Shown: positions 21,772 to 47,765 of the stretch, in pieces
Numbering within the stretch: the first letter of the stretch is position 1
Layout of the letters: every line of letters begins with the position of its first letter
Origin: Bacteroidales bacterium
Lineage (GTDB): Bacteria > Bacteroidota > Bacteroidia > Bacteroidales > Tenuifilaceae
Length of the DNA stretch: 64,000 nt
Direction of reading: 5' to 3'
Assembly (NCBI GenBank): GCA_013376985.1
Contig: JACABB010000009.1
Location: forward strand, 62,001 to 126,000
Program-made: the position numbers and the translations under genes
Notes under the pieces: model-generated
What the model was told of the DNA's origin: nothing
What the model saw: only the letters and a program-made list of their open reading frames with translations
The model's database searches: none

Positions 21772-21797
21772 CGGTTGAATTTTATTTTTTTAATTTT

Positions 21798-27319: not shown

Positions 27320-27375
27320 TGTACTTTATAAGTTAGTTCGACCAACAGTTATACCAAATGTCTAAATGTTAAAGG

Positions 27376-30576: not shown

Positions 30577-30740
30577 ACCTTTTAAAATAAGACTCCAACC
30601 TCAACATTTCTACTATTATGAACTTTGCTTTTATAATACTCAATATTAGAATCGCCTAACTTCATTTATCAATTATAAAATAATACAAGCAGAAGCACAA
30701 ATCCCTCTCCTAATGCGAAACTCCATAAAAACAATACTTT

Positions 30741-30959: not shown

Positions 30960-30981
30960 TCAGAATCAAAGAAAATATCTT

Positions 30982-31680: not shown

Positions 31681-31683
31681 AAA

Positions 31684-32118: not shown

Positions 32119-32125
32119 CTTCTTT

Positions 32126-32362: not shown

Positions 32363-32514
32363 AAAGCAATAATTTTATCAACCTAATTTTACGTAAAACT
32401 ACGAACAAATTGGCACATTCATGGTTTTTCTTCCTTTGACCTGATATATAGTAATGGTTTAAACTTTTACTACGTTTGTAAATCTTATGATTAACATTTT
32501 AGTGATATATAAAA

Positions 32515-32760
32515 AACGTGAGCTCGAAATAAGAAGTTATATTAACAATATAATAAACAATTATTTACAAATACAATATCTTTGGATGGAATGGTGGAAT
32601 AATGGAAACGAAGTTCGGCGGAGCCAATAATGGAAGGCAAGAGGATAGATTCTTACTTATTTCTTCCAGTTTTCCATTCTTCCAATTTTCCATTGATTCA
32701 AATAGAATAAATTGGTTGATATGTAGGTTAATACATTGTTTCTTATGTTGAACTCACGTT
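32515..32760. mobile_element. MITE-like element, copy 1
   Basis: About 246 bp with terminal inverted repeats: the left end AACGTGAGCTCGAAATAAGAA and the inverted right end AACGTGAGTTCAACATAAGAA agree at 17 of 21 positions. The first 90 bases match copy 2 (39821-40022) at about 90%. Inside is a palindromic stretch with GGAATAATGGAA and TTCCATT words. No transposase is encoded. No target duplication is visible. The right end lies 15 bp before the aquaporin start codon. Confidence 0.85.
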
Positions 32761-32775
32761 AATTATTGATAGAAT

Positions 32776-33606: not shown

Positions 33607-33937
33607 AATAAAAGAAAATAGAGAGAGCAATTATTGTTGGAGAATTCCCTTCGTTAGGCTTAGACTGTGCCCGGAGTATTATCCCGTAAACATTTTTGTG
33701 GTTTCTAACACGAATTTACAAATATTGATTGCTTTTACAATGGTTAATAGTTCTGCTGGTTTTGAGCTCAGGCGCAGCCTGCTACAATAGAACGACACAT
33801 GTATGCTTTGCTAACCTGCATTGAACCCAATGATTTTTGTTTTTTTTATAGCCTCAATTTAATGGGAAGGAATTTATTTTGGCTAAGGTGATTATAGAAT
33901 TTTTTTCAATCATTCTTTTAAGGAATCAATTAATAAC
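33607..33937. other. Intergenic region, 331 bp
   Basis: Region between the aquaporin gene and the first cassette leader. The wording TATAGCCTCAATTTAATGGG near 33848-33867 is the reverse complement of wording at 42654-42669 (TTAAATTGAGGCTATA), pointing to a shared short repeat. A 71-codon frame here has no coding character. No RNA gene seen. Confidence 0.45.
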
Positions 33938-33966
33938 TTGAGGGCTTATAATTATTGATATATTTG
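33938..33966 (+). promoter_or_regulatory. Promoter in cassette leader 1
   Basis: TTGAGGG (-33) and TATATTTG (-7) with the first bases 21 apart, identical in spacing to the promoter in leader 2. It would drive the small membrane protein gene at 34068. Confidence 0.7.
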
Positions 33967-34047
33967 TATAAGGATGTCAAAAACCAAACCTATACATCTA
34001 ATTCGGGCGTATAGGTTTGGAAAAACTCACATATAAACGAGTTAGCA
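33938..34047 (+). repeat. Conserved leader repeat of cassette locus 1, with promoter
   Basis: A 110-bp element shared with 38373-38483 at about 85% identity. It begins with a Bacteroidetes promoter (TTG at 33938-33940, then TATATTTG at 33959-33966, a spacing of 18 bases). A short frame MSKTKPIHLI follows, along with a palindrome, AAACCTATAC / GTATAGGTTT. It ends in GTTAGCA (34041-34047). The GTTAGCA end is the inverted complement of the TGCTAAC found just after the gene that follows. Confidence 0.8.
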
Positions 34048-34067
34048 TCCAATTTAAAAGAGACGAC

Positions 34068-34619
34068 ATGAGCAAAAAGAGTATTGACAGAAAAGAGGTA
34101 TTGAAAACATTGAAACTAAGACTTTCAGAGGGAAAGACTAGACAAGAAATATTGGAAGAACTTTCCGAACAATATTTTGATAGAAAGTCATTGAGTATAT
34201 TTATAGCCTCGACACCCGACCAAAAGACGATTGATAAGTATAAAATATTAAATAACATTTTACTTCTATTGCTTTTATTGTCAATTGCTGCAAAGACAAT
34301 TGTTGGAATAGTATTATTATCAAGTATCTCAATATTTTTGATTCCTTTTGTTTTTATTTTCTCATTAGTTAATATCTTTTTCACCATTGAAGTCTCAAAA
34401 TTCAAAGGTTATATTTATAATATTTTAGGAATTCTAACATTAGCGGGTATATTGAAGCTTCTTTCCAACTTTGACGTTTATGGAAAAGGAATTCTAATCG
34501 ACGTTGCAATTGGATTAGTGATAGCATTATTATCTTTCTATCTTGGAAGAAAAATGTTTCCGAATTATGGACTTTTTGGTCCGAAGAAAGACGCAAATGG
34601 TAATATGATGCTAGAATAA
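34068..34619 (+). CDS. Small membrane protein of unknown function (cassette gene)
   Basis: The ATG at 34068 (MSKKSIDRKEVLKTLKLR) is preferred over an upstream ATG inside the leader repeat. The 183-aa product has a charged helical N-terminus (about 1-60, with LSEGKTRQEILEELSEQYF, resembling a short HTH or coiled region), then four hydrophobic segments (about 65-155) and a short polar tail (FGPKKDANGNMMLE). I do not recognise a family with certainty. Membrane proteins of this size are common in integron cassettes. It is bounded by GTTAGCA 20 bp upstream and TGCTAAC 8 bp after its stop, so it is the single gene of cassette locus 1. Confidence 0.75.
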   Translation: MSKKSIDRKEVLKTLKLRLSEGKTRQEILEELSEQYFDRKSLSIFIASTPDQKTIDKYKILNNILLLLLLLSIAAKTIVGIVLLSSISIFLIPFVFIFSLVNIFFTIEVSKFKGYIYNILGILTLAGILKLLSNFDVYGKGILIDVAIGLVIALLSFYLGRKMFPNYGLFGPKKDANGNMMLE

Positions 34620-34627
34620 AAATCGGG

Positions 34628-34792
34628 TGCTAACAGCGTATTTATTGTATTTGGGCTGATGACGCATTTGGAGTTCTTAACGCTTTTTGGTAGCTTTACT
34701 ATCGTGGGACGATGAAACGTTTCAACCGAGCGTTTTTTGCGAGTTCACCGAAGGTAAACTCCCAAGCACTACAAATACGCAAACCGTTAATT
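34628..34792 (+). repeat. attC-like element A after the small membrane protein gene
   Basis: It opens with TGCTAAC (34628-34634) and a 20-base arm at 34636-34655 that pairs at 16 of 20 positions with 34761-34780. It closes with GTTAATT (34786-34792). The middle carries CTGATGACGCA next to the left arm and CGTGGGACGA at 34703-34712, both conserved in elements B and C. The layout (short core, arm, central spacer, arm, short core) is that of an integron recombination site. The core differs from the usual RYYYAAC. Confidence 0.7.
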
Positions 34793-34803
34793 AGCTATAA
34801 AAT

Positions 34804-35715
34804 ATGGAAATAATAGTTCATCATAAAATATCAGATCTATATAAAACCCTCAACTTGGATTTTGAGAATGAAATAGATTTTACCATTCTTAGTATACCCA
34901 ATATTCATCCCCAAATTCCCTTTAAATCACCCATTTTAAAGGCAGACTACTTCTCCTTCATTTTAACAATAGACGGTTCGGGAGTTTATTATCTAGATGA
35001 TAACAAATTCCCTTTCGATTCCAGAACTATTTACTTTACGAATCCGGGCCATATTAAATCATACGAACTGGATGAATCAAAAGATGCTTATATAATAACC
35101 CTAACTGAAACCTTTCTCCGAGAGTATGTACATTCGGAGATATACGCTGAATTTCCCTTCCTATTAGCCGAAATTGTCCCGCCTGAAAAGCTGCATCAAA
35201 ATAATTTTGAAGAATTCACAATTCTCTATAAACAAATGTTAAACGAATTCAACAAGAACTCTGAATACAAAAACAAAATTCTGGGAAATCTATTTTTGGT
35301 ATTGCTTTTAAAAATAAAAGAGAAATTTTGGTCGAATTACAATCCCATAGAAGAAGGTAACAGGAATTCTCAAATTGTTAAATCGTTCAAACAACTTTTG
35401 GAATCTGAGTTCAAGAAAGTTATGGAAAGGGAGCAAAACGATAGCAAATTACAAGTTCAGTATTTTGCCGAAAAATTGAATCTACATCCTAATTACCTGA
35501 ACTCGGTAATAAAAAGTAAAACAGGTAGAACGGTAAATGATTGGATATCTAAGCGAACCCTTTCCGCCGCCAAAATTCTTTTAATGAGCTCCTCATACTC
35601 CTCAAAGGAAATAGCCTATAAATTAGGCTTTAGCGAGCCTACCCACTTTAGCCGGTTTTTTAAAAAACATACCCAACTTTCTCCAAACACATATAGAAAA
35701 TCGAATAAATTATAA
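34804..35715 (+). CDS. AraC-family transcriptional regulator
   Basis: A 303-aa regulator. The N-terminal cupin-like sensing domain (about 30-150, FSFILTIDGSGVYYLDDNKF) is followed by a C-terminal AraC DNA-binding domain with two helix-turn-helix units (about 205-300). Key parts are YFAEKLNLHPNYLNSVIKSK and IAYKLGFSEPTHFSRFFKKH, ending in SPNTYRKS. The gene lies 98 bp before an aldo/keto reductase gene on the same strand, with a second reductase and a tautomerase further on. It probably controls these genes in response to an aldehyde or quinone-like compound; the ligand is an inference. Confidence 0.93.
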   Translation: MEIIVHHKISDLYKTLNLDFENEIDFTILSIPNIHPQIPFKSPILKADYFSFILTIDGSGVYYLDDNKFPFDSRTIYFTNPGHIKSYELDESKDAYIITLTETFLREYVHSEIYAEFPFLLAEIVPPEKLHQNNFEEFTILYKQMLNEFNKNSEYKNKILGNLFLVLLLKIKEKFWSNYNPIEEGNRNSQIVKSFKQLLESEFKKVMEREQNDSKLQVQYFAEKLNLHPNYLNSVIKSKTGRTVNDWISKRTLSAAKILLMSSSYSSKEIAYKLGFSEPTHFSRFFKKHTQLSPNTYRKSNKL

Positions 35716-35813
35716 ATGAATCTTTGAAATTGGTCATTTCTTGTTTGATTGAGGTTGTATTATAAAGTCCTTTATCACTCACCTTTGTATCATAAACTTT
35801 AAAATACAAAACA

Positions 35814-36740
35814 ATGGAAAAACAGATGATCGAAATATCAAAATCAACGCGCAATGTAATAGGAATGCCCTTAGTAGGATTTGGTACCTACCAATTATCC
35901 GCTGAACAAGCTGAACTCTGCGTAAGTGAGGCATTAAAAGCTGGATTTAGGCATATTGACTCAGCTGAAGGCTATCAAAACGAAAAAGGCACTGGTAAAG
36001 GGATAAAAGCTTCTGGTGCTTCAAGGGATGAAATTTTTATAACCACTAAACTTTTTCCCGGATTCAAACAGTGGGGAACACCCGAAAAAACCTATGAAAA
36101 AACCATTGAAACGCTGAAAACTCAACTACAACAGCTACAGCTAAACTACGTTGACCTTTACCTTATACATGCCCCGCTATCGGAGCTGAGGCTGGAACAG
36201 TGGAGTGCTTTGATGGAGCTAAAAAAACAAGGACTAACAAAGCATATTGGCGTGTCGAACTACAATGAAGAGAGAATTAAAGAGATTCTGGATGCAGGCC
36301 TAGCTAAACCCGAAGCAAATCAGGTTGAATTTCATCCAATCTGTAGCCAGATTGATTTGACCAAATACATGAAGCAGAATTCAATCGCACCCATTGCATA
36401 CAGCTCACTTGCTCCCCTTTCAACTTGGCGAGTTGAAGAAGGACAAGGAGGTGAAGTTCTTGCCGAGATAAAAAAAGAATGCCAGGTGGTAATCAAAGAA
36501 ATCGCAGCCAAACTTAAGGTTTCAGAAGCCAAATTGCTTTTGAGATGGGGATTGCAGCACGGCTACTGCGTATTAACAAAGAGCAGCAAACCTGAACGTA
36601 TTAGGGAAAATTTAAATGTATTCAATTTTGAAATCCCCGATAGCGAAATGGAGCGTTTAAACCTGCTTAACCAAAATCGAGCAATTGCTTGGGCTGCAAG
36701 TGGTCTTAACCCGATGGAAGCGGCTCCAGTTCTCAAATAA
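35814..36740 (+). CDS. Aldo/keto reductase
   Basis: A 308-aa NADPH-dependent reductase of the AKR fold. The catalytic tetrad is visible: Asp and Tyr in HIDSAEGYQNE, Lys in ITTKLF and His in YLIHAPLSE. The cofactor site includes HIGVSNYN, and VLTKSSKPERIRENL binds the phosphate of NADPH. Such enzymes reduce aldehydes and ketones. A second ATG lies three codons in (MIEISKS); either is possible. Upstream a CACCTTTG at about 35780 weakly resembles a promoter element. The AraC regulator precedes it and a tautomerase gene follows after 55 bp. Confidence 0.94.
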   Translation: MEKQMIEISKSTRNVIGMPLVGFGTYQLSAEQAELCVSEALKAGFRHIDSAEGYQNEKGTGKGIKASGASRDEIFITTKLFPGFKQWGTPEKTYEKTIETLKTQLQQLQLNYVDLYLIHAPLSELRLEQWSALMELKKQGLTKHIGVSNYNEERIKEILDAGLAKPEANQVEFHPICSQIDLTKYMKQNSIAPIAYSSLAPLSTWRVEEGQGGEVLAEIKKECQVVIKEIAAKLKVSEAKLLLRWGLQHGYCVLTKSSKPERIRENLNVFNFEIPDSEMERLNLLNQNRAIAWAASGLNPMEAAPVLK

Positions 36741-36784
36741 ATTAAATATCGAAATACAAACAATACAAATATAAAACTTTAAAA

Positions 36785-36790
36785 AGGAGG
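36785..36790 (+). promoter_or_regulatory. Strong Shine-Dalgarno sequence
   Basis: AGGAGG ends 5 bases before the ATG of the tautomerase gene. A full Shine-Dalgarno is unusual in Bacteroidetes, where most genes in this window have none. Confidence 0.75.
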
Positions 36791-36795
36791 TCATT

Positions 36796-36987
36796 ATGCC
36801 AGTAATTACAATTGCAATAGATCAAACCAGTGAAGAAAAAAAGAAACAATTGGTTGAAAGTTTAACAAAAGAAGCTGTTAAAATAACAGGTTACCCAGCC
36901 GAGTACTTTTTTGTTTATGTACAGGAATATCCATCAGAAAATATTGGTATCGGGGGTAAAACCTTAAAGGAAATGAGAAGTAAATAA
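36796..36987 (+). CDS. 4-oxalocrotonate tautomerase family enzyme
   Basis: A 63-aa protein, normal length for the family. After removal of Met the N-terminus is Pro1 (PVITIAIDQTSEEKKKQLVE), the catalytic base of tautomerases. The body includes TKEAVKITGYPAEYFFVYVQE and ends in IGIGGKTLKEMR. These small enzymes work as hexamers or related oligomers and move protons in keto-enol substrates such as breakdown products of aromatics. It follows the aldo/keto reductase by 55 bp and is closed by a strong terminator, so the pair probably forms one transcript. Confidence 0.92.
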   Translation: MPVITIAIDQTSEEKKKQLVESLTKEAVKITGYPAEYFFVYVQEYPSENIGIGGKTLKEMRSK

Positions 36988-36994
36988 TTCTGTA

Positions 36995-37028
36995 CTCCGT
37001 AATCCTAGTCAGGATTACGGATTTTTTA
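36995..37028 (+). terminator. Rho-independent terminator
   Basis: The stem TCCGTAATCC / GGATTACGGA, with loop TAGTCA, is followed by TTTTTT. It lies 8 bp after the tautomerase stop and separates it from the next reductase gene. Confidence 0.9.
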
Positions 37029-37063
37029 ACTACATAAATATCTTTTTTATTATAGTATCGTCA

Positions 37064-38038
37064 ATGAAAAAAAGAAAAATCGGAAACAGCAATTTGCATG
37101 TTTTCCCAATCGGTTTAGGAACAATGGGAATGTCCGAATTTTACGGGGAAACCGATGAAAAGCAATCAATCAGTACAATCCATAAGGCAATTGAGCTTGG
37201 TATTGATTTCTTCGATACAGCCGATATGTATGGAAGCGGGCACAATGAAGAATTGCTAGGCAAAGCACTAAAAGGCAAATTTGGCAAAATTACCCTTGCA
37301 ACCAAATTTGCAAATGTACGTGGGTCAAACGGTGAATTTTTAGGCATAAATGGCAAACCAGAATATGTTAAAAAAGCCTGCGAAGCCAGCTTAAAACGGT
37401 TGGGAATCGATACCATAGACTTGTATTACTACCACAGGGTTGATCCCGAAGTACCAATCGAAGAAACAGTGGGTGCAATGGCCAAGCTTGTTAAAGAAGG
37501 GAAAGTCAGATATCTTGGACTCTCCGAGGTAAAAGGCGAAACGCTTAAAAGAGCATACGCTATTCATCCCATTTCTGCTGTACAATCGGAATATTCAATC
37601 TGGACAAGAGACGTTGAAGAAGCAAATATGAAAGAATGCCGTGAATTGGGCGTATCTACCGTTGCCTACAGTCCGCTTGGCAGAGGAGTCTTAACCGGAA
37701 AATTCAATAAAATTGAAGACACCAATGATTACAGATACTACTTACCAAGAATGGAAGCAGAAAATTTTCAATCAAATAAAAAGATAGTTGCTGAGATTGA
37801 AGAAATTGCAAAATCAAAAAATGCAAAAGCCTCCCAAATTGCTCTTGCTTGGATTCTTGCAAAAGGGGAAGATATTATTCCTATTCCCGGCACAAAAAGA
37901 GAAAAATATTTGATTGAAAACTTGGATGCTCTTAAAATTAAACTGAGTAACGACGAAATCAGTAAGTTGGATAAATTATACGAACTTGTAAAAGGCAATC
38001 GTTATGATGATTACTCAATGGCAAATACACTACAGTAA
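37064..38038 (+). CDS. Aldo/keto reductase (YajO/AKR13-like)
   Basis: A 324-aa AKR protein, distinct in subfamily from the reductase upstream. Catalytic residues are in FFDTADMYGSGHNEELLG (Asp and Tyr), TLATKFA (Lys) and YYYHRVDP (His). The NADPH site shows GLSEVKGE, VAYSPLGRGVLTGKF and IPIPGTKREKYLIENL. It likely reduces aldehydes or quinones. It begins 36 bp after the tautomerase terminator, so it probably has its own promoter. Its stop codon overlaps the first base or two of MITE copy 3. Confidence 0.94.
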   Translation: MKKRKIGNSNLHVFPIGLGTMGMSEFYGETDEKQSISTIHKAIELGIDFFDTADMYGSGHNEELLGKALKGKFGKITLATKFANVRGSNGEFLGINGKPEYVKKACEASLKRLGIDTIDLYYYHRVDPEVPIEETVGAMAKLVKEGKVRYLGLSEVKGETLKRAYAIHPISAVQSEYSIWTRDVEEANMKECRELGVSTVAYSPLGRGVLTGKFNKIEDTNDYRYYLPRMEAENFQSNKKIVAEIEEIAKSKNAKASQIALAWILAKGEDIIPIPGTKREKYLIENLDALKIKLSNDEISKLDKLYELVKGNRYDDYSMANTLQ

Positions 38039-38278
38039 CATCAGTTTGATATTAAGAAACAACGTATTAATCTATATAACAATCAATTTGTTTTATTTGA
38101 AACAATGGAGTGCTGGAATAATGGAATCGAGTTTACGAGTTCGATGAAGTCAAAAATGGAAGAAAGAAGTAAAAATCTAATCTCCTGTTATCCATTATTG
38201 ACCTCGTCGAGTTCCGCTTTGCTCCAGTTCCATCATTCCAACCTTCCATTATCACATTTCTTATATCTAACACACGTT
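38037..38278. mobile_element. MITE-like element, copy 3 (inverted relative to copy 1)
   Basis: About 242 bp. The left end AACATCAGTTTGATATTAAG and the inverted right end AACGTGTGTTAGATATAAGA are the same terminal repeat as in copies 1 and 2. The first 75 bases match the reverse complement of the right end of copy 1. The internal TGGAATAATGGA and TCCATTATT words are shared. Flanks ACAGT and ACATT may be a decayed 5-bp target duplication. No coding sequence. Confidence 0.8.
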
Positions 38279-38372
38279 ACATTATATTTTGGATTGAAAG
38301 ATTGAAATTTGGAAAATTTAGGTAATTATCTGTACTCCTTGCCAGCATACCTTCAAAGAATCAAATAGCCGT

Positions 38373-38483
38373 TTGAGGGTTTATAATTATTGATACATTT
38401 GTGTAAGTATGTCAAAAACCAGACCTATATATCCAAATTGGATGCATAGGTTTGGGAAAATTAGACATATAAATGAGTTAGCA
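38373..38483 (+). repeat. Conserved leader repeat of cassette locus 2, with promoter
   Basis: Second copy of the 110-bp leader. The promoter is TTG at 38373-38375 and TACATTTG at 38394-38401. A short frame then begins MSKTRPIYPNWMHRFGK, a palindromic stretch follows (ACCTATATATCC with GGATGCATAGGT), and GTTAGCA lies at 38477-38483. In this copy the short frame stays open into the next gene, while in copy 1 it stops. Differences from copy 1 are spread evenly, so the copies are not recent. Confidence 0.8.
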
Positions 38484-38520
38484 ATAAGGCATGAAGACTG
38501 GAATGTAACCTTTATATCGC

Positions 38521-39000
38521 ATGAAATATTGTCTGTTTATAATAATTATTTTGCTGAATTTCTTTCAAGGAATTTGTCAAGATACAAATAAAAAAAATCA
38601 ACAGATTCTTAATGATTCATTGAAGACCAGAAACGAAAAGAATACTACGAGTCAAATCGACAAAGATAGCATTGAAGTTCTTGATAATTCTGTTTTGTGT
38701 CTCAACTATGAGGGTGGAGAAGATGCAATGATAGAATATGTACAGAAAGGGTTTATGTTAACAAAGGGGGATAATGCAAATTACGGAAAAGTAGAAGTTA
38801 ATATTACCGTGAATGAAAAGGGGAAAATAGACAATATTAAAATACTTAAAGGGGTAAGTGTACGAGTTGACAGAGAAGTTATACGCATTATATTAGGGAT
38901 GCCTTCATGGAAATGGACATGTAAAGATAAACCCAAAGGACATTTCCAAATAACGAAGTACTTGACCATTCCAATAAATTCAAAGACATACAGAAAATAA
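38521..39000 (+). CDS. Secreted protein with TonB C-terminal-like domain (cassette gene)
   Basis: A 159-aa protein with a signal peptide (MKYCLFIIIILLNFFQGICQ). A polar linker (about 20-60) leads to a TonB-C-like domain (about 80-155): YGKVEVNITVNEKGKIDNIK, then ILKGVSVRVDREVIRII and ITKYLTIPI. In TonB this domain touches outer-membrane receptors, but here there is no membrane anchor or proline-rich rod, so it is not a working TonB. Its job is unknown. It is bounded by GTTAGCA 37 bp upstream and TGCTAAC 11 bp downstream, so it is the first gene of cassette locus 2. Confidence 0.8.
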   Translation: MKYCLFIIIILLNFFQGICQDTNKKNQQILNDSLKTRNEKNTTSQIDKDSIEVLDNSVLCLNYEGGEDAMIEYVQKGFMLTKGDNANYGKVEVNITVNEKGKIDNIKILKGVSVRVDREVIRIILGMPSWKWTCKDKPKGHFQITKYLTIPINSKTYRK

Positions 39001-39011
39001 ATATGCCCTAT

Positions 39012-39145
39012 TGCTAACAAGTGGCAAAACCAATTGGGGCGGATGATGCAGATACAAATGTTTTTACTATTTTAGTATGTTTTTAGCGTGGGACGAGATA
39101 GTTGCGGTTAACTCCCCAACTGGCCTTGCCACGGGAACGTTGTGC
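39012..39145 (+). repeat. attC-like element B
   Basis: It begins with TGCTAAC (39012-39018). Arms of 19 bases (39021-39039 and 39114-39132) pair at 16 of 19 positions. It ends in GTTGTGC (39139-39145). The conserved middle has CGGATGATGCA beside the left arm and AGCGTGGGACGAGAT at 39085-39099. This is the clearest copy of the element in the window. Confidence 0.75.
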
Positions 39146-39182
39146 TTCATGCTATGATGACTCATAAAAGAATATTAAACAA

Positions 39183-39728
39183 ATGAAAAGAATTTTTGTA
39201 ATTATTTTGACACTATTGCTTGTTGATAGTGCTTTTTCACAAAATCAAGATAGCATAAAAGCGATGGCCAATGCTGCGGTAAAAATGTTTACTTGGGACA
39301 TTCAAAAAGCAGAACGAGGAACTCTAATGTTTTTAGATGTTCCTTACCAAAGAACCGGCAAAGATTCAATTGAATATCTCACAATGACTGTTGCAAAAGA
39401 CAAATCAAAACAGCGCCCAGAATTTATTTCAATTATTATACCAAGCAATATTTGTAAAAGTAACGGTATCTTTATAAAGTTTGGAAATAAAGAACTAGAG
39501 AAAGGAAATCCAGTAAGAGTCCAATTCGAAAAATGTAATAATGAAACATGCACCGCTAGAATTATTGGCGGTTATGTGACGGATGAAGAAACGAAAGAAA
39601 AGGTAGATGTTTTTCAAAAGTTTCTTGACTTTCAACACGTTTATTTTTTATTCACCTATATGGACGGAAGTCATAAATCAGTCGCAATTCCTTTGTTTTC
39701 ATTTCAAAATCAGTATAAATCCCTATAA
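39183..39728 (+). CDS. Secreted IalB-like protein (cassette gene)
   Basis: A 181-aa protein with a signal peptide (cleavage near DSAFSQ). The middle, RPEFISIIIPSNI, then KSNGIFIKFGNKELEKG and VQFEKCNNETCTARIIGG, resembles the invasion-associated locus B (IalB) family of periplasmic proteins, with its paired cysteines. Function in Bacteroidetes is unknown. It is bounded by GTTGTGC 37 bp upstream and the nearly complementary GTACAAC (39761-39767) downstream, so it is the second gene of cassette locus 2. It has no visible promoter of its own and may depend on the one in the leader. Confidence 0.65.
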   Translation: MKRIFVIILTLLLVDSAFSQNQDSIKAMANAAVKMFTWDIQKAERGTLMFLDVPYQRTGKDSIEYLTMTVAKDKSKQRPEFISIIIPSNICKSNGIFIKFGNKELEKGNPVRVQFEKCNNETCTARIIGGYVTDEETKEKVDVFQKFLDFQHVYFLFTYMDGSHKSVAIPLFSFQNQYKSL

Positions 39729-39760
39729 TGTTTGACATTTCAAGTGACAAAAGCACGAAA

Positions 39761-40102
39761 GTACAACAGCTGCTACAAACCATAGGGCTGATGCGCAGAT
39801 AAGCAAGTTTTTAGTACTTTAACGTGAGTTCGATATAAGAATTCATGTTAACAATATAATAAACAATTATTTACAAATACAATATTTATGGATGGAATAG
39901 TGGAATAATGGAGAGAAAGAGGCTAGATTTTTGCTTGTATCTTCCATTTCTCCATTGATTCAAATAAAATAAATCAATTGATCTCCAGATTAATACATCG
40001 TTTCTTACATCGAACTGACGTTACTTTAGTAAAAGTTTAACGTGGGACGAGATTACGGGTTTTTAACTCCCCAACATTTCCAACCACGGAAACATTACGT
40101 GC
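39761..40102 (+). repeat. attC-like element C, interrupted by a MITE
   Basis: It starts with GTACAAC (39761-39767), has GGGCTGATGCGCAG at 39785-39798, and after the MITE continues with AACGTGGGACGAGATTACGG and AACTCCCC. It ends in ATTACGTGC (40094-40102). Removing the MITE and one copy of ACTTT restores the central wording of elements A and B. Its two arms pair poorly, so the halves may come from different parent elements. Confidence 0.65.
39821..40022. mobile_element. MITE-like element, copy 2, inserted in element C
   Basis: 202 bp. The terminal inverted repeats AACGTGAGTTCGATATAAGA and (inverted) AACGTCAGTTCGATGTAAGA differ at two positions. It is flanked by ACTTT on both sides (39816-39820 and 40023-40027), a clean 5-bp target duplication. 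It is about 90% identical to the first 90 bases of copy 1. No coding sequence, so it must be moved by a transposase encoded elsewhere. Confidence 0.88.
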
Positions 40103-40210
40103 AAGCCTAAAACTATACACAATTGGAGTTTTAGGCATTGTTGATAAATTCAATAATTTTAAAATGAACTACAAGGGTATTTTGAGTATTTTTGGCGAAA
40201 GCCGTAGACA

Positions 40211-41419
40211 ATGGTGAATTACTCAACAGTAAAGAAAAATTTTAAGCTGGAAATCGAGCGAGGTGATAATAATAATCTTGCCTATCTTACCCATTATTTA
40301 CAGAATCATAAGAATAGAGTTTCCCAACACTTTAAAGAACCTGCGATTAAATACTATACGGAGCTGAATGAGCAGTTTAATTGTGTTTTTGAGCCTGAAA
40401 TTCAACAGGTTTTACCTTTAAATTTTGATATACCATTCCCCCCACCTGAGAAAATTGACTTTACATTTATTGATTTGTTTGCTGGGATTGGCGGCTTTCG
40501 TATCCCAATGCAAGAGTTGAAAGGGAAGTGTGTATTTACCTCTGAATTCAATTTTTATGCACAAAAATCATACGAACTAAACTTTGGAGAGGTTCCTTTT
40601 GGTGATATTACCCAGTTGGATTTAAATGTAGTACCTAAGCATGATATTTTAGTCGCAGGATTTCCTTGCCAACCTTTCAGTATCTCTGGCAAAATGAAAG
40701 GATTTGAAGATACCCGTGGTACATTGATACATAATGTCCTTCAAATAATAAAAAAGCGTGAACCCAAAGTTGTGCTTTTGGAAAACGTCAAACATTTAGT
40801 ACATCATGATAGCGGAAACACTTTAAAAACAATTATTAAGCATCTTGAGGATTTAGGATATATAATTTCATGGAAAGTTCTAAATGCTTCCGATTTTGGT
40901 GTTCCTCAAAATAGAGAGCGGATAATAATAATTGGAAACAAAAAAAAGAAATTTGATTTTTCCAAAATTGTCGTACAACCCAAGCCGATTTTAAAACCAT
41001 TTTTAGAAAGCGGTGTGGAGTTTGAATATTTAAACGAACCATACACAATATTGGAGGATTATAAAGTTCAGGATTCTGGTTTGATTTTTATCGGGCACAG
41101 AAATAAAAAAATACGGGGAGCTGGTGTTCGTCCAGGAACTGAGCATTTATCAAGAGTTCATAAACAACCTAATCGTATTTATTCGTCCGATGGATTGCAC
41201 CCAGCCTTACCTTCACAGGAAACCTCTGGTAGATTTTGGATTTATAATGAAGGAAAAGTTAGAAAGCTTACAATAAATGAATGTTATAGATTAATGGGCT
41301 TTCCTGATAATTTTGTTAAAATAAATAACACCAGTGAGCTTTATAGACAAATAGGAAATTCAGTATGCGTTCCTATGGTTAAAGAAGTAGTAAAACAAAT
41401 AAAGGAACAATTGCTGTAA
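40211..41419 (+). CDS. DNA (cytosine-5) methyltransferase, type II modification enzyme
   Basis: A 402-aa m5C methyltransferase. Motif I is FIDLFAGIGGFRIPM (SAM binding), motif IV the catalytic GFPCQPFSISG, motif VI LLENVKHL, motif VIII QNRERIIIIG, and motif X RQIGNSVCVPMV near the C-terminus. The target-recognition region lies at about 270-330. An N-terminal extension of about 85 residues precedes motif I and is not typical. The restriction enzyme gene begins 3 bp after the stop, so the pair is one operon. The target sequence cannot be read from the protein. The pair is bounded by ATTACGTGC before and its complement GCACGTAAT (42536-42544) after, like the other cassettes. Confidence 0.96.
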   Translation: MVNYSTVKKNFKLEIERGDNNNLAYLTHYLQNHKNRVSQHFKEPAIKYYTELNEQFNCVFEPEIQQVLPLNFDIPFPPPEKIDFTFIDLFAGIGGFRIPMQELKGKCVFTSEFNFYAQKSYELNFGEVPFGDITQLDLNVVPKHDILVAGFPCQPFSISGKMKGFEDTRGTLIHNVLQIIKKREPKVVLLENVKHLVHHDSGNTLKTIIKHLEDLGYIISWKVLNASDFGVPQNRERIIIIGNKKKKFDFSKIVVQPKPILKPFLESGVEFEYLNEPYTILEDYKVQDSGLIFIGHRNKKIRGAGVRPGTEHLSRVHKQPNRIYSSDGLHPALPSQETSGRFWIYNEGKVRKLTINECYRLMGFPDNFVKINNTSELYRQIGNSVCVPMVKEVVKQIKEQLL

Positions 41420-41422
41420 ATT

Positions 41423-42526
41423 ATGGAGCCACAAGAATTTTTAAAAAAGCAGTTTGATATATCAGTTAAACTTATAGCTTCAAATGACTTTATAACCTCA
41501 AAGATTACAGAAAACGAGAAGGAACTTTTAGATACAATTCTTCAGTATTCGGAGCAAGCTAAAGGGATTTTAACTGTTTGTATCACCAGTATAGTTTATA
41601 AGGCATTGCATCCTGACCAAGACATTAGAAAACATCAAAACAGTATCGAAGGTGGTTATTCTGGCAGAACCTTTGACACTCGCTTTATAACACCTTTTCT
41701 TAAATCATCTCATTTTCCTGCAATGGCTGAAAGTGGTTGGTTAACAAGGTCGTTAGAGCAAAAAGTTCCTTACGATAAAAACTATACTGGAGCAATTAAG
41801 CCCGTTGAGTTAAAAATCGCATTTATTGGAATTTTGGATAAGGTTCAAAATGGAGCAAGTTGCGAATTTTATTTGCAGTATCTATTGCAAGGTCTAATAT
41901 TAAAAAGGAATAAGCAGACTATCGATTTGGCAAAACCAACAAACCTTTCCATAAAATCGATTCTTGATTTGTTAAACTTTCACTTCAATGCCAAATACAA
42001 AGCCGAAGGAGCTTCTCGTTTGCCAGTTTTGGCCATTTATGCAGTTTATCAATGCTTGATAAAAGAGGCGAAAAGATTTGAAAATAAAGAACTGTTACCA
42101 ATTGAAAGCCATACCTCTGCCGATACTCGAAGCGGTAGGATTGGAGATATTGAGGTGATTGATGAACATAATCGTTCATTTGAAGCCGTTGAAGTTAAAC
42201 ACGGAATTCCTATTTCTTTCCAATTGGTTCAGGATGCATATTCAAAATTTCAAACTACACCTGTCAATAGATACTACATTCTTTCTACAGCACCATATCC
42301 CTTACAGGATGAGATGGAAAGGATTTCAATTGAAGTGCAACGGATTAAAAATATTCATGGTTGCCAGTTAATTATTAACGGGATTATGGATTCGTTGAAA
42401 TACTATCTCAGACTACTTGATAATACCTATGAATTTGTTGAAAATTACGTTAAGCTAATTGAGAATGATACAGCTTTGAAATTTGAACACAAAGAAAAGT
42501 GGAATAATTTGATTAGCGAATTATAA
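41423..42526 (+). CDS. Type II restriction endonuclease
   Basis: A 367-aa protein directly after the methyltransferase gene (3-bp gap), the classic position of the partner nuclease. A PD-(D/E)xK-type site is likely: Asp in SGRIGDIEV and the ExK of EAVEVKHG, followed by ISFQLVQDAYSKF. The N-terminal half has YSGRTFDTRFITPFLK. The layout of the catalytic part recalls the SacI-type restriction enzyme family, but this is only a resemblance. It cuts unmodified DNA at the site protected by the partner. No repressor (C protein) gene is present. Confidence 0.85.
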   Translation: MEPQEFLKKQFDISVKLIASNDFITSKITENEKELLDTILQYSEQAKGILTVCITSIVYKALHPDQDIRKHQNSIEGGYSGRTFDTRFITPFLKSSHFPAMAESGWLTRSLEQKVPYDKNYTGAIKPVELKIAFIGILDKVQNGASCEFYLQYLLQGLILKRNKQTIDLAKPTNLSIKSILDLLNFHFNAKYKAEGASRLPVLAIYAVYQCLIKEAKRFENKELLPIESHTSADTRSGRIGDIEVIDEHNRSFEAVEVKHGIPISFQLVQDAYSKFQTTPVNRYYILSTAPYPLQDEMERISIEVQRIKNIHGCQLIINGIMDSLKYYLRLLDNTYEFVENYVKLIENDTALKFEHKEKWNNLISEL

Positions 42527-42535
42527 AAAATGCCA

Positions 42536-42720
42536 GCACGTAATCAAGTAGACAGCCGATAGGCAAAAAGCCTATCGGAAAGCCTCTCACATCACTGTGC
42601 GTACAGTGGTTGATTAAGCATGAATAAGATCGCTCTTTGCACCAATCCCCCCCGTTAAATTGAGGCTATACGAACCCAATCATTTTTGGCTTATTTGCTT
42701 ACAGCCTCGGACGAACGGGG
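42536..42720. other. Junction region with hairpin and possible group II intron remnant
   Basis: GCACGTAAT (42536-42544) mirrors the end of element C. A perfect hairpin, CCGATAGGC / GCCTATCGG, lies at about 42553-42575. The reverse complement of about 42583-42612 reads TGTACGCACAGTGATGTGAG, which recalls the conserved end region of bacterial group II introns; this is from memory. A long imperfect palindrome with outer CCCCCGTT / AACGGGGG and inner GAGGCT / AGCCTC follows at 42650-42721. Confidence 0.35.
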
Positions 42721-42767
42721 GTAATGCTTTATGGCTTCCTGATAGTTTACGAGTTAAGATTTGGTAA
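42720..42767 (+). pseudogene. Remnant of the 3' end of a second M13 peptidase gene
   Basis: The plus frame reads GNALWLPDSLRVKIW and stop, identical in all 15 residues to the end of the M13 peptidase at 19729-21771 (minus strand). Codons differ at synonymous positions (CTT CCT GAT AGT TTA here; CTC CCC GAT AGC CTA there), so it is an older paralogue or relic and not a recent copy. Matching continues past the stop (TTCTTCCGATAGATATTTTT) into the terminator. The rest of the gene is gone. Confidence 0.85.
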
Positions 42768-42790
42768 GTTCTTCCGATAGATATTTTTAT

Positions 42791-42841
42791 GCAGAAACAA
42801 GGAATCAAACATTGAGTGTAAGTTTGACCCCTTGTTTCTGC
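42791..42841 (+). terminator. Hairpin terminator of the lost M13 paralogue
   Basis: An inverted repeat, GCAGAAACAAGG with CCTTGTTTCTGC, is homologous in position and loop length to the terminator at 19655-19704. It is preserved although the gene before it is deleted. Confidence 0.75.
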
Positions 42842-42908
42842 ATTTTATATCAATCCCCGATAGGCTAAAACCTATTGGATATCTACTCGATTATGGATTG
42901 GTTTTCTT

Positions 42909-43283
42909 TTAGTTAGATGCTATTTCTTTTGGGTTTGCACCATATTCATTTTGTCCAATAACTCCGTCCATACAGAATAGAACCAAGAGCCAAATACCAC
43001 CAATAATAGGAATGAAAATAAGAAACATCATCCAGCCGCTTTTCCCAACATCATGGAGTCTTCTTACTCCAACTGCTAATCCAGGAATAAGAACAGCAAA
43101 AGCATAAACAAAATAGAATAATCCATACGGTAATTCACCGATTGTTGTTTTAGCTACATTGTCGATAATCATAGCCACAATTAAAAAAATGATGTTAAAC
43201 AGTGCAAACATCCAATATTCTTTTCTTCTTGCTCTGCCGTTGAATTCAGCATACTTTTTTAAAACTTGTAAATACCAGTTCAT
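42909..43283 (-). CDS. DUF805 family membrane protein
   Basis: A 124-aa protein with three to four membrane segments. The opening FNGRARRKEYWMFALFNIIF, the middle GLAVGVRRLHDVGKSGWMM and the tail GENEYG-like NEYGANP are the hallmarks of DUF805 (YhaH/YhaI type). The function of the family is not known; it is common in single-gene units and near mobile regions. The gene is isolated, with no clear partner on its strand. Confidence 0.92.
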   Translation of the reverse strand: MNWYLQVLKKYAEFNGRARRKEYWMFALFNIIFLIVAMIIDNVAKTTIGELPYGLFYFVYAFAVLIPGLAVGVRRLHDVGKSGWMMFLIFIPIIGGIWLLVLFCMDGVIGQNEYGANPKEIASN

Positions 43284-43599
43284 TGGGTTTGGTTTTTTTA
43301 GTTTTCCTACTCGTAAGGCTTTTCGGTGTCGCCCCGTTTTTCATGTGGTTTCTGAACTCCACATTTATTATTTTAGTCTAAAAACAGTCAAGTTTTATGT
43401 AATAAATGTATAGAATAATTGCCTGTCTTAGTTTGCCGCAATTTTTTAAACTAGCCCCAATGGGGTGTAATCTATTTTTAAACTCGGTGACGGCACAACT
43501 TGTCCCGATGTTTTTTATTGGGCACCGACCGCTGAACCCAACCTTTGCGCAAGGGGTTACTGCTATACATTTAATATTAATTGTAAAGTAATCTTTACC
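43284..43599. other. Intergenic region, 316 bp
   Basis: Upstream region of the DUF805 gene. It contains a stem CCCCAATGGGG near 43452 and a longer stem-loop with CGGTG / CACCG at about 43485-43527. No gene or RNA could be named. Confidence 0.4.
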
Positions 43600-43672
43600 A
43601 AATATAAAAAATTTTCACTAAAACCCTCCATTAAACTTTTTATTCAAAACCGAAAGTTAGATTTGTTTGGTA
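43600..43672 (+). repeat. Direct repeat, left copy (duplicated promoter)
   Basis: About 73 bp nearly identical to 44623-44693, including ACTAAAACCCTCCATTAAAC and the -7 element TAGATTTG (43658-43665). Weaker similarity extends about 35 bases further upstream. It lies on the far side of the Shedu-like gene from the right copy. Confidence 0.85.
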
Positions 43673-43829
43673 CTTTCAGCTACAATGAAGTTACGGCTTG
43701 CGCCTAAGTTTTGATGAGCAAGGATTATTTTAAAGGTATTTGTGCGGTCAAAGACCGCTGTTTAATTACGACGTAGATACGCTTCGCTAATCTATGTCGA
43801 GCAGGGGCTGTTGGCAACCGTAATAATAT

Positions 43830-44531
43830 TTAATCAGGTAAATGAAAGGCTTTTGCATTTTCTGTAAAATTTCTTAATAACCAATCATATGTTCTAATTT
43901 CAAGCTTTGTAGTATTCAATCTATTCCATGCACCTTTAAGTTTCTGTCTTCTTTCATCATTTTCAAGTTCAGATTCCTTCCCTACAATAAGCAATCCATT
44001 AGGTTCTCTAAAATCTTTTAGTTTAAATATATCTCTAAGATGACCTTGAATTTCTGAGCATGAATTTATATATTCTAACAGTTGACATAGTCCTTTATTT
44101 ACAGTAGAACTAAAATATAGTTCATTATTACTATCTAAAGTAAAAATATTATCATTTACACCTTTTAACTCAATAATCCACCATTGAAATCCATCAGAAT
44201 TTTTTCCACCAACAATAAAATCAGGAATAATTCCTTTAGATACTCCTTCAATTTTAGGTTTAATTACTTGCTTTGAATACACCCAAATTCCATGATGTCC
44301 TGTTCTAAATGAATATAATGCAAATGAAAATAAAACTTGATTTGTTAATAAAAAGTTATGCATTTCTGTTTCACTTGCATTATTTCCAATTAGTCCTGAT
44401 AACAATCGAAGTTGAGTTTTTGTCGCATTTGTCTTTATTAACCTAAATGCTTCATCTGGCCATTCATTAGGCCATGGTTCATTCTTTATGTTTTTTAAAA
44501 AACCATCTAATTTTGAATAATTTCTGTTCAT
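43830..44531 (-). CDS. Shedu-like (DUF4263) nuclease-domain protein
   Basis: A 233-aa protein without signal or membrane segment. The nuclease-type core has PDFIVGG, then WWIIELKG (the D...ExK of a PD-(D/E)xK fold), followed by GLCQLLEYINS. The C-terminus RRQKLKGAWNRL and LEIRTYDWLL is typical of DUF4263, the domain of the anti-phage protein SduA (Shedu). Shedu proteins work as single-gene defences with very varied N-termini; here about 80 residues precede the core. It is in a region with a restriction-modification pair and lies between two direct repeats of about 70 bp, which suggests it arrived as a unit. Defence is inferred from family and context. Confidence 0.78.
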   Translation of the reverse strand: MNRNYSKLDGFLKNIKNEPWPNEWPDEAFRLIKTNATKTQLRLLSGLIGNNASETEMHNFLLTNQVLFSFALYSFRTGHHGIWVYSKQVIKPKIEGVSKGIIPDFIVGGKNSDGFQWWIIELKGVNDNIFTLDSNNELYFSSTVNKGLCQLLEYINSCSEIQGHLRDIFKLKDFREPNGLLIVGKESELENDERRQKLKGAWNRLNTTKLEIRTYDWLLRNFTENAKAFHLPD

Positions 44532-44622
44532 TATGCCATTCTTTAATTATAGTTGCAACTCATTATATATGTCCTAAAGATAATGTTATACATTAAATTT
44601 AAAAACATATTTGTTTCACATC

Positions 44623-44693
44623 AAATATAAAAATTTCCACTAAAACCCTCCATTAAACTTTTTATTCAAACCCGAAAGCTATATTTGTTTGGC
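44623..44693 (+). repeat. Direct repeat, right copy (native promoter of GH3 gene)
   Basis: Right copy of the repeat at 43600-43672. It ends with TATATTTG and lies directly before the GH3/beta-lactamase gene, so this is probably the original promoter. Confidence 0.85.
44680..44687 (+). promoter_or_regulatory. Bacteroidetes -7 promoter element of GH3 gene
   Basis: TATATTTG, 39 bp before the chosen ATG at 44727. The same promoter is duplicated at 43658-43665, where it no longer faces this gene. Confidence 0.7.
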
Positions 44694-44726
44694 AATTTTT
44701 TAGGTACTGTAATTACTCGAATTCCC

Positions 44727-47700
44727 ATGAAGCTTAATCGACTTTTTGTTCTACTGGCTATTCTGCATTTTGCTTTGACTCAGGTTGTAGCATCCAATAA
44801 TCAATTAACCGCTTTACCAAAGGTTGATACTCTAAGGCAGAGCGTTTGGGTTGATTCGCTTATGAAATCGCTTACGCTTAGGGAGAAGATTGCCCAGTCG
44901 TTTATGGTTTCGGCTTACTCCAATAAGGATCAGAAGCATATAGATGAGATAGTGGCTCTGGTTAAGAACGAAAAGATTGGTGGTCTGATTTTCTTTCAGG
45001 GTGGCCCCGTTCGAGAGGCAAGGCTTACCAACTACTACCAATCCCTATCCCGAATTCCAATGCTTATTTCCATTGATGGTGAGTGGGGGCTGGGTATGCG
45101 GTTGGATAGCACCTTCTCTTACCCCCGCCAGATGATGCTTGGCGCAGCTTCAAACCAGCATCTGGTGTACGAGGTAGCATCGGATATTGCGCAGCATCTT
45201 AAAAGGATGGGAATTCATATCAACTTTGCACCCGTTGTGGATATCAACAATAACCCGCTGAATCCAGTGATAAGCAGCCGTTCGTTCGGCGAGAATAGGC
45301 AAATGGTTGCCGATTATGGCATAGAGTATGTGAAGGGTTTACAGGATAATGGCATTATTGCCTGTGCAAAGCACTTTCCGGGTCATGGCGATACCGATGC
45401 CGATTCGCATCTGGCTCTGCCCAAAGTAAACCACAATCTTGCTCGTTTGGATAGCGTTGAGCTATACCCATTCAAAAAGCTTATCGAGGGGGGTGTTGCA
45501 TCGGTTATGATTGCACACCTACGTGTTCCTGCGCTTGAGAAGGATACAACGCTGGCATCGAGCATATCATCTTCGGTAATCAAAGGATTCCTTTGTGATA
45601 GCCTGAAATTCAAAGGTTTGATATTTACTGATGCCCTGAATATGAAGGGTGTTGCCGATTTTCACACTCCAGCAATTTTGAACTGGCTTTCCTATAAAGC
45701 GGGTAACGATTTTTTAACCTGTCCTGAGAAAATTAAGGAGTCAATTGATTATATAGTAGGTGAGGTGGCAAAAGGAAATTTTACCGTTGATGAGGTAAAC
45801 CGCAAGTGCAGAAAAATCCTTAAGGCAAAATACGCCGCAGGACTTTCGGCCTATAAACCGATTGAGCTAAAGAACCTGAATTCGGATTTAAACACCGTAA
45901 CCTCCGAACTTATAAAACGAAGAGTTGCTGAGCAGGGGATTACGCTTTTGAATGGGAGCGGGCTAATCCCAATACTAAGGCTCGATACGCTTAAAATTGC
46001 TTACATTGAGGTTGGTAAGGGTAAAGGCGATGCTTTCCGTAATCAGCTGGAGATGTACGCATCGGTAACGCCGTTTAGCATTAACCCCGAATCGTCATTA
46101 AACTCCTACGATTCGTTGCTTACCGCCTTGGATTCGTATAACCTAATTATAGTTGGTTATCACGCTGCCGATACTAGAGTTGCGAAGAATTACGGGATAT
46201 CCAACCAGGCCTCTAACTTCATTTTCGACCTATCGTTTAGGAAGAAGATTATTGTAGATATTTTTGGTAATCCCTACACGCTGAATCGTCTACTGAACCT
46301 TCCATCGCTGGGCGGTTTAATAATCTCATTCGATAATTCGGCCATTACCCAAAGCCTTTCGGCGCAGCTAATTTTTGGTGGAATAGGGGTGAGTGGAACG
46401 TTGCCTGTATCGCCAACAAAGGATATTCGTGTTGGAAGCGGCTATAGGAATAGCGAGAGAATTCGTTTAAAATACACCATACCCGAGGAGCTGGGCATTG
46501 ATTCAAAATATCTCCTTAAAGTTGATTCAATGGCTAACGATGCCATTGCAAAGCAGATTACTCCCGGAATGCAGATTCTTGTTGCAAAGGATGGCGTTGT
46601 TTTTTACAATAAATCCTTTGGTTCTTACACCTATAGCAACGAGGTTGCTGTAAATGGTAAATCGATATACGATATTGCATCGGTAACAAAGATTACATCT
46701 ACCGTTCCATCCATTATGCGCTTGTTCGATAGGGATAGCATTGGACTGCAAAAATCGCTCGATAGCTATATCAATTTACCGAACGGAAGTAATAAGAAGA
46801 AGCTGGTAATTAGCGATTTGCTCCGCCATCAGGCGGGTTTGCAGCCTTGGATTCCATTCTACCTATCAACACTCTCAACGCTATTCTCTGATAAACCGGC
46901 TATTAGTAGGATTCAAACCCCTGATTACCCTTACTCCTTCAACGAGAATACATATATCAGCAAATTCAGCATTCCAAGCCCTAAGTTTTATAGTAGAAAG
47001 TACTCGTTTGATTTCCCATTACAGGTTGCAGAGAATATCTACGCCATAGAGGGGATGAAGGATTCCATTTTTATACGTATGAATGCCACCGAGGTAAAGG
47101 ATGCTGGTAGGTATAAGTATAGCGATTTGGGTTTCCTATACCTACAACGTGCTGTTGAAAATATTACCAGTAAAGGGATTGATGAGTATGCCGATAATAA
47201 TTTTTACAGGCATCTGGGGATGAATAGCACAGCCTATCAACCATTGAGGAAGTTCGATTCTTCAAGGATTGTTCCTACTGAGGATGATTTGACCTTCCGT
47301 AAGCAGGTTGTCCGTGGGTATGTACACGATCAGGCTGCTGCTATGATGGGTGGTATTGCTGGACATGCAGGGGTTTTCTCCACTGCAAACGATCTTGCAA
47401 AGCTTATGCAGATGTATTTGCAGAAGGGTGTATACGGTGGTGAGCGGTTTTTTACGGCTAGCACCGTTGAGCTGTTTACATCAACGCCAAAGGATAATAA
47501 CGGGAATCGCAGGGCGTTAGGTTTTGATAAGCCTGAGCCTAAAGTTGGAAAATCTTCGCCTGCTTGTGTATCGGCATCACCATTGAGTTTTGGGCATTCG
47601 GGCTTCACTGGAACAATGGTTTGGGCTGATCCTGAGAATGGTGTGGTTTACGTTTTCCTATCGAACCGTGTTTACCCGGATGCTTCGAATAATCGGTTGG

Positions 47701-47765
47701 CTGAATTGAATATTCGTACTGATATTCAGGAGATTTTTTATGAGGCGGTGAGGAGGAGGAAGTGA
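44727..47765 (+). CDS. GH3 beta-N-acetylglucosaminidase fused to beta-lactamase-like serine hydrolase
   Basis: The ATG at 44727 (MKLNRLFVLLAILHFALTQ) gives a proper signal peptide; an in-frame ATG at 44685 lies inside the promoter and is rejected. The 1012-aa product has a GH3 domain (about 50-390) with SIDGEWGLGMRL and the NagZ motif KHFPGHGDTDADSH. A GH3-C domain follows (to about 590). The C-terminal serine beta-lactamase-like domain (about 600-1000) has SVTK (SxxK nucleophile), YSDLGF at the YxN position and HSGFTG. This fusion is typical of Bacteroidetes and probably acts in the periplasm on muropeptides, removing GlcNAc and cutting an amide or ester. It appears to be a single-gene unit. 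Confidence 0.95.
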   Translation: MKLNRLFVLLAILHFALTQVVASNNQLTALPKVDTLRQSVWVDSLMKSLTLREKIAQSFMVSAYSNKDQKHIDEIVALVKNEKIGGLIFFQGGPVREARLTNYYQSLSRIPMLISIDGEWGLGMRLDSTFSYPRQMMLGAASNQHLVYEVASDIAQHLKRMGIHINFAPVVDINNNPLNPVISSRSFGENRQMVADYGIEYVKGLQDNGIIACAKHFPGHGDTDADSHLALPKVNHNLARLDSVELYPFKKLIEGGVASVMIAHLRVPALEKDTTLASSISSSVIKGFLCDSLKFKGLIFTDALNMKGVADFHTPAILNWLSYKAGNDFLTCPEKIKESIDYIVGEVAKGNFTVDEVNRKCRKILKAKYAAGLSAYKPIELKNLNSDLNTVTSELIKRRVAEQGITLLNGSGLIPILRLDTLKIAYIEVGKGKGDAFRNQLEMYASVTPFSINPESSLNSYDSLLTALDSYNLIIVGYHAADTRVAKNYGISNQASNFIFDLSFRKKIIVDIFGNPYTLNRLLNLPSLGGLIISFDNSAITQSLSAQLIFGGIGVSGTLPVSPTKDIRVGSGYRNSERIRLKYTIPEELGIDSKYLLKVDSMANDAIAKQITPGMQILVAKDGVVFYNKSFGSYTYSNEVAVNGKSIYDIASVTKITSTVPSIMRLFDRDSIGLQKSLDSYINLPNGSNKKKLVISDLLRHQAGLQPWIPFYLSTLSTLFSDKPAISRIQTPDYPYSFNENTYISKFSIPSPKFYSRKYSFDFPLQVAENIYAIEGMKDSIFIRMNATEVKDAGRYKYSDLGFLYLQRAVENITSKGIDEYADNNFYRHLGMNSTAYQPLRKFDSSRIVPTEDDLTFRKQVVRGYVHDQAAAMMGGIAGHAGVFSTANDLAKLMQMYLQKGVYGGERFFTASTVELFTSTPKDNNGNRRALGFDKPEPKVGKSSPACVSASPLSFGHSGFTGTMVWADPENGVVYVFLSNRVYPDASNNRLAELNIRTDIQEIFYEAVRRRK

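What the first reader, a model, noticed from the sequence alone, without database searches (positions are those of the whole stretch)
43562..44693. Shedu-like defence gene between long direct repeats that duplicate a promoter
A DUF4263 nuclease gene (opposite strand) lies between direct repeats of about 70 bp (43600-43672 and 44623-44693), with weaker similarity extending to about 110 bp. The right copy is the promoter of the GH3 gene. The inserted block thus carries, or created, a copy of its target, which is not typical for transposons and points to integration by homologous or repeat-mediated recombination. The repeats would also allow clean loss of the gene.
Basis: partly seen in the sequence, partly recalled or inferred. 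Interest (0 to 1): 0.6.

Follow-up and report, generated by a model that had tools for sequence, protein, structure and literature searches.

The report
Shedu gene between duplicated promoter copies
A probable anti-virus nuclease gene sits at the edge of a bacterial defence island, flanked by a working promoter and an older, decaying copy of it, which fits insertion of foreign DNA by ordinary recombination rather than by a transposon.

Summary
A 233-aa SduA/DUF4263 protein (43830-44531, minus) lies between direct repeats 91% identical over 70 bp (43607-43676, 44629-44698); a gapped alignment extends them to 43564-43694 and 44587-44716. The right copy is the leader of the GH3 gene. Same-genus relative G002 has one copy, 97% identical to the right one, no Shedu, and an ABC-3C-like operon in the same slot. 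The left copy is drifting, so this is neither a fresh target-site duplication nor an assembly error repeating identical sequence.

The setting is larger than reported. In relatives GH3 lies beside a divergent tricorn-protease gene; here 29.4 kb separate them. That island carries Shedu, a cytosine-5 methyltransferase and a PDC-S34 candidate defence gene. A weak, older leader-like copy lies inside the island in both genomes, and G002 has another block between ~500-bp direct repeats.

Best reading: stepwise growth of a defence island at a hotspot by homology-based insertion, probably single crossover of circularised DNA. Hotspot and duplication are shown; the crossover is inferred. The protein family is known and the footprint has laboratory precedent, so novelty is modest.

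The parts
43830..44531 (-). Shedu (SduA, DUF4263) gene, 233 aa, PD-(D/E)XK motif IPDF...IELKG
44587..44716 (+). Right copy of the repeat: leader of the GH3 gene, with TATATTTG at 44680; conserved in G002
43564..43694 (+). Left, drifting copy of the same leader, with TAGATTTG at 43658; its last ~10 bp overlap repeat-like sequence
43718..43813 (.). Dispersed REP-like hairpin repeat, ends 17 bp from the Shedu stop codon
43491..43537 (.). Part of a second dispersed REP-like repeat, left of the left copy
44727..47765 (+). GH3 N-terminal domain plus beta-lactamase-domain gene whose leader is duplicated (start at 44727 chosen from the G002 orthologue; the ORF list gives a TTG at 44685)
12100..15369 (-). 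Tricorn-protease-like gene, the ancestral divergent neighbour of GH3
15470..44586 (.). Island between the two neighbours; left edge approximate, judged by eye
23049..23100 (-). Weak, older GH3-leader-like copy; it faces the 3' end of the PDC-S34 gene
22060..23019 (+). PDC-S34 candidate phage-defence gene, 319 aa
   Evidence: PDLC05002, E 2.1e-64
40211..41419 (+). Cytosine-5 DNA methyltransferase in the island

Best explanation
A solitary Shedu nuclease gene is the outermost module of a defence island that grows at a hotspot between the divergent tricorn-protease and GH3 genes. Foreign DNA carrying the nuclease and a copy of the GH3 leader entered by recombination in that leader, most likely a single crossover of a circularised fragment, less likely one-sided homology with an illegitimate join. 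Either leaves the order: old leader, cargo, leader, GH3. The left copy lost its job and drifted; the right copy stayed under selection as the leader of GH3. The Shedu protein presumably cuts invading DNA. Shown: the island, neighbours without it, the duplication, the single copy in a relative, an intact nuclease motif. Inferred: the crossover, the donor, which copy came from it, and the phage-defence role.
For: Insert flanked by long direct repeats that copy the GH3 leader; one copy in G002, which lacks Shedu. GH3 and the tricorn gene are directly divergent in G003, G004, G005, G007 and G018 and in 11 of 29 GH3 loci examined. The slot holds another defence-type operon in G002. By eye in the alignments, from AAATAT to TTTGG, the left copy has 4 private substitutions, the right 1 private indel and G002 1 private substitution, while four-fold sites of GH3 differ by 27% between the two species: a constrained leader and a relaxed copy. 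Shedu gene 27.8% GC against 37-38% in the flanks. A second block between ~500-bp direct repeats at the same hotspot in G002. Precedent: single crossovers of recircularised DNA in E. coli left duplications of 109-950 bp in 14 sequenced clones (PMC3240628, passages).
Against: No strain of the same species with an empty or circular form was available. No step in identity to G002 marks a crossover in GH3, but G002 is too distant for that test to be strong. The left copy diverges at both ends, so the exact duplication length is unknown. Tandem duplication before insertion gives the same picture.
Confidence: 0.5

Rival explanations
1. Cargo exchange by double crossover with a donor that already carried Shedu in the same slot: the right arm lay in GH3, the left arm in a REP-like repeat, and the left leader copy is a leftover of an earlier rearrangement.
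For: In both the window and G002 the cargo 3' end is followed within about 20 bp by the same REP-like repeat, and the cargo differs between them.
Against: It does not by itself make a second leader copy. REP-like repeats are dispersed and commonly sit behind genes, so their presence is weak evidence.
Confidence: 0.2
2. The leader was first duplicated in tandem and Shedu entered later between the copies by an unrelated route.
For: Nothing dates the insert and the duplication separately.
Against: It needs two events where one suffices; none of the four other same-genus genomes searched shows two leader copies at E<=0.001 near GH3 (G001 is only 67% complete).
Confidence: 0.15
3. The left copy is an independent regulatory element kept for a use of its own, for instance a promoter reading antisense into the Shedu gene.
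For: It keeps a TAnnTTTG-type element (TAGATTTG at 43658) and points at the 3' end of the Shedu gene.
Against: It has lost conservation at four sites that the right copy and G002 share. TAnnTTTG occurs 53 times in the plus strand of the window, so keeping it says little.
Confidence: 0.08
4. A transposon, integron cassette or integrase-driven element.
For: A multicopy repeat lies just behind the gene, which first suggested attC.
Against: No recombinase among 21 of 21 scanned island ORFs; no integron-integrase match over the family's cut-off in the genome; repeat copies share a ~75-bp core with unrelated flanks.
Confidence: 0.04

Closest known systems
Shedu (SduA, DUF4263) single-gene anti-phage nuclease
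   Same: SduA domain over most of the protein, PD-(D/E)XK residues, solitary gene.
   Different: Short: the domain match starts at residue 52, so there is little room for the N-terminal clamp described for E. coli SduA (PMC12904381, passages). Activity untested.
Single-crossover insertion-duplication (PMC3240628, abstract and passages)
   Same: Foreign DNA flanked by direct copies of the locus where it recombined; duplications of 109-950 bp in 14 sequenced clones.
   Different: There a laboratory plasmid in E. coli; here an old natural insert with diverged copies and no known donor.
Repeat-flanked small variable segments (PMC2884548, passages)
   Same: Small variable segment between direct repeats; 10-18% of such segments in that study.
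   Different: That study accepted short repeats, from about 11 bp; here the repeat is about 70-130 bp and contains a promoter.
Defence-island hotspot between conserved neighbours (general knowledge, recalled)
   Same: Conserved flanking genes, variable defence cargo.
   Different: Cargo is added beside a promoter, with no integrase found in the island.

Membership tests
Shedu / SduA | SduA_C (DUF4263) domain | tested here: met
   PF14082 57.7 bits, cut-off 27; PDLC00397 E 1.7e-74; no NCBIfam match
Shedu / SduA | PD-(D/E)XK catalytic residues | tested here: met
   D104 and E121 invariant in 4 aligned sequences; Lys after E-L in 3 of 4, by eye
Shedu / SduA | N-terminal sensing domain or clamp | tested here: inconclusive
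   Only about 51 residues before the domain match; structure prediction failed, mean pLDDT 40
Shedu / SduA | Phage-defence activity, tetramer, DNA-end cleavage | not testable with these tools
   Needs experiments
Single-crossover insertion-duplication | Insert flanked by direct copies of one chromosomal locus | tested here: met
Single-crossover insertion-duplication | One copy in relatives without the insert | tested here: met
   G002 one copy at 97%, G003 and G004 one weaker match each at GH3
Single-crossover insertion-duplication | Crossover tract or donor molecule | tested here: inconclusive
   No step in identity to G002 within GH3; no closer genome held
Transposon insertion | Transposase in the insert | tested here: not met
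   The only ORF of 60 aa or more lying wholly between the copies is the Shedu gene
Transposon insertion | Short identical target duplication | tested here: not met
   Repeat of 70 bp or more, 91% identical
Integron cassette | Integron integrase in the genome | tested here: not met
   14 partial tyrosine-recombinase matches to TIGR02249, none over the cut-off, best piece 97.8 of 265 bits; the test scores pieces, so it is not strict
Integron cassette | attC site behind the gene | tested here: not met
   Repeat core shared, flanks unrelated among the aligned copies
Island at a hotspot | Conserved neighbours adjacent in relatives, different cargo in others | tested here: met

The most novel reading that the evidence does not exclude
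The GH3 promoter is a recurrent docking point that needs no recombinase: defence modules arrive one after another, each with a fresh copy of the promoter, and leave the old copy behind, so that decaying promoter fossils (the left copy, the copy near 23.05 kb, and those near 57.8 and 54.3 kb in G002) record the order in which the island was built.
Probability: 0.3. Interest if true: 0.5.

Novelty: new member of a known kind. Interest (0 to 1): 0.36.

Why it matters
How single defence genes enter islands without an integrase is often unclear. This locus keeps a recombination footprint, has a related species with other cargo in the same slot, and keeps the host promoter intact, so the order and route of acquisition might be read from sequence. 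The nuclease itself is a compact member of a known Shedu subfamily, rare among the genomes searched.

Tried and rejected
attC/integron idea: the repeat beside Shedu (43718-43813) first looked like attC because it is multicopy and just behind the gene. The aligned copies share only a ~75-bp hairpin core with unrelated flanks, and no integron-integrase match passes the cut-off. Rejected. Folding that stretch gave nothing beyond shuffles (z -1.05 and -1.39).

A second dispersed repeat at 43491-43537. The direct repeats at 32515/39821 and 33904/38339 looked like further cargo-flanking pairs but are dispersed families: at least 44 and 9 matches in the own genome. They are not counted as evidence.

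Structure prediction from the single sequence was unusable (mean pLDDT 40), so no fold search was made. The PDB sequence search gave no relative (one chance hit, E 0.69).

Searches for Shedu relatives: 3 of 60 related genomes at E<=0.001 counting its own, the other two weak (E 1.1e-5 and, with stops, 8.5e-4); 1 of 395 genomes of the class at E<=1e-8, its own; no phage record; 1 plasmid, 36.5% identical; no viral contig; 1 genome contig, 31%. The last two scans reach close relatives only.

Against my reading: the older leader-like copies are weak. The window copy scores 13.6 bits (best of 100 shuffles 9.7) and the G002 57.8-kb copy 19.6 (best 10.0), but they are orthologous and count once. The G002 54.3-kb copy scores 8.9 alone, below the shuffle maximum, and is linked only by flank similarity. 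A hit of similar E-value (1.1e-4) fell in the 3' end of a 507-aa ORF of G001, probably chance. blastn ends the shared kinase block at 23049, but a permissive gapped alignment runs on to 22905, so that edge is not exact. In 18 of 29 GH3 loci the tricorn neighbour was not seen within the flank held, which for several is short.

Full report
What is there. A 233-aa gene lies on the minus strand at 43830-44531. It encodes a Shedu protein: Pfam SduA_C at 57.7 bits, cut-off 27, and PADLOC SduA model PDLC00397 at E 1.7e-74; NCBIfam has no match. The motif reads IPDF...IELKG; its Asp and Glu are invariant in an alignment with three distant relatives, and the Lys is kept in 3 of the 4 sequences (by eye). 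Relatives are rare: 3 of 60 related genomes counting its own, the other two weak, and 1 of 395 genomes of the class at E<=1e-8, its own.

The repeats. Two direct copies, 43607-43676 and 44629-44698, are 91% identical. A gapped alignment extends to 43564-43694 and 44587-44716, score 148 against a best of 57 in 300 shuffles. At E<=0.001 the own genome holds only these two. The right copy ends 10 bp before the GH3 ATG at 44727 and contains TATATTTG; the left keeps TAGATTTG. Both match TAnnTTTG, a promoter element of Bacteroidota (recalled; no call names the organism).

Comparison with relatives. G002, same genus, has a GH3 protein 92% identical, no Shedu match and one leader copy 97% identical to the right copy, although four-fold sites of the two GH3 genes differ by 27%. 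So the leader is constrained. By eye, from AAATAT to TTTGG, the left copy has 4 private substitutions, the right one private indel, G002 one private substitution. This argues against a recent target-site duplication and against an assembly error that repeats identical sequence. In G002 the slot beside the leader holds a three-gene ABC-3C-like operon (Pfam CTD12, MC8, DUF2326), also opposite to GH3 and also followed by the REP-like repeat.

The island. In G003, G004, G005, G007 and G018 GH3 is directly divergent from a homologue of window gene 12100-15369, a tricorn-like protease. Of 29 GH3 loci with up to 1.5 kb of flank, 11 showed this neighbour and 18 did not, G002 among the latter. In the window the two genes are 29,357 bp apart. 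In G002 the tricorn gene was not found on the part of the contig read, which ends about 20 kb upstream of GH3. The left junction is near 15.47 kb, where similarity to the G003/G004 intergenic region is lost (by eye). The island holds a cytosine-5 methyltransferase, a PDC-S34 candidate defence gene (E 2.1e-64), histidine kinases, an M13 peptidase, an aquaporin and aldo/keto reductases. None of its 21 ORFs of at least 80 aa matched a transposase or recombinase in Pfam. The Shedu gene has 27.8% GC against 37.2-38.2% in the flanks.

Older copies. A profile of the three leader copies finds a weaker match in both islands: window 23049-23100 (13.6 bits; best of 100 shuffles 9.7) and G002 57.83-57.89 kb (19.6 bits; best 10.0). 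They are orthologous and count as one finding. In a whole-genome search with the right copy, the G002 site is the best match after the GH3 leaders (E 0.001). The G002 copy points the same way as GH3; the window copy is inverted together with the kinase genes. The window copy faces the 3' end of the PDC-S34 gene, as the left copy faces Shedu. G002 has a related copy at 54.3 kb; alone it is at chance level (8.9 bits), but about 500 bp around it matches the region around the 57.8-kb copy (362 of 540 columns identical, score 344 against a maximum of 154 in 200 shuffles). Between them lie two genes without a PADLOC or NCBIfam match. The window island has one copy of that region and no nucleotide match to those genes. 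So a block between long direct repeats is seen twice at this hotspot. These older copies are suggestive only: a hit of similar E-value in another genome looks like chance.

How it most likely works. A single crossover of circularised DNA that shares the leader gives the observed order: old leader, cargo, leader, gene. In E. coli 56 of 60 Lac- clones gave the PCR product diagnostic of such a duplication, and 14 sequenced clones had 109-950 bp (PMC3240628, abstract and passages). One-sided homology with an illegitimate join is the alternative. Small variable segments flanked by direct repeats make up 10-18% of such segments in PMC2884548, where short repeats counted (passages). The Shedu mechanism is taken from a review: DNA-end binding and nicking by a PD-(D/E)XK nuclease (PMC12904381, passages). 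This protein has only about 51 residues before the domain, so its sensing may differ. No paper on promoter duplication at defence hotspots stood out in the listings of two searches (listings only).

Loss of the gene. The longest identical run between the copies is 33 bp, so deletion back to one leader is conceivable but should be rare; it was not observed and could not be looked for.

Verdict. The protein is of a known kind and the footprint has precedent; the possible serial use of one promoter as a docking point is the part worth following.

Noticed in passing
G000 C10:48532-48739 (L036, L037, L089): A broken Shedu-like relic, 46-67% identical in pieces, with stop codons.
   Followed up: partly
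19650-19776 and 42720-42846: 127-nt inverted repeats, 88% complementary, with no match in G002 or G004. The kinase genes between them are inverted relative to GH3 compared with G002, so the segment may have flipped through them.
   Followed up: partly
43300-43367 (-): Rfam DUF805 RNA (RF03081, 81.8 bits), upstream of the DUF805 gene at 42909-43283.
   Followed up: no
41423-42526: 367-aa gene directly after the cytosine-5 methyltransferase gene, without a Pfam, PADLOC or NCBIfam match; by position a candidate unclassified restriction enzyme.
   Followed up: no
32480-32780: Member of a dispersed intergenic repeat family of roughly 250 bp, at least 44 matches in the own genome and 45 in G002.
   Followed up: partly
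50885-51796 (-): Tyrosine recombinase with 85-92% identical homologues at the same place in G002, G003 and G004; it lies outside the island and looks like a core gene.
   Followed up: partly
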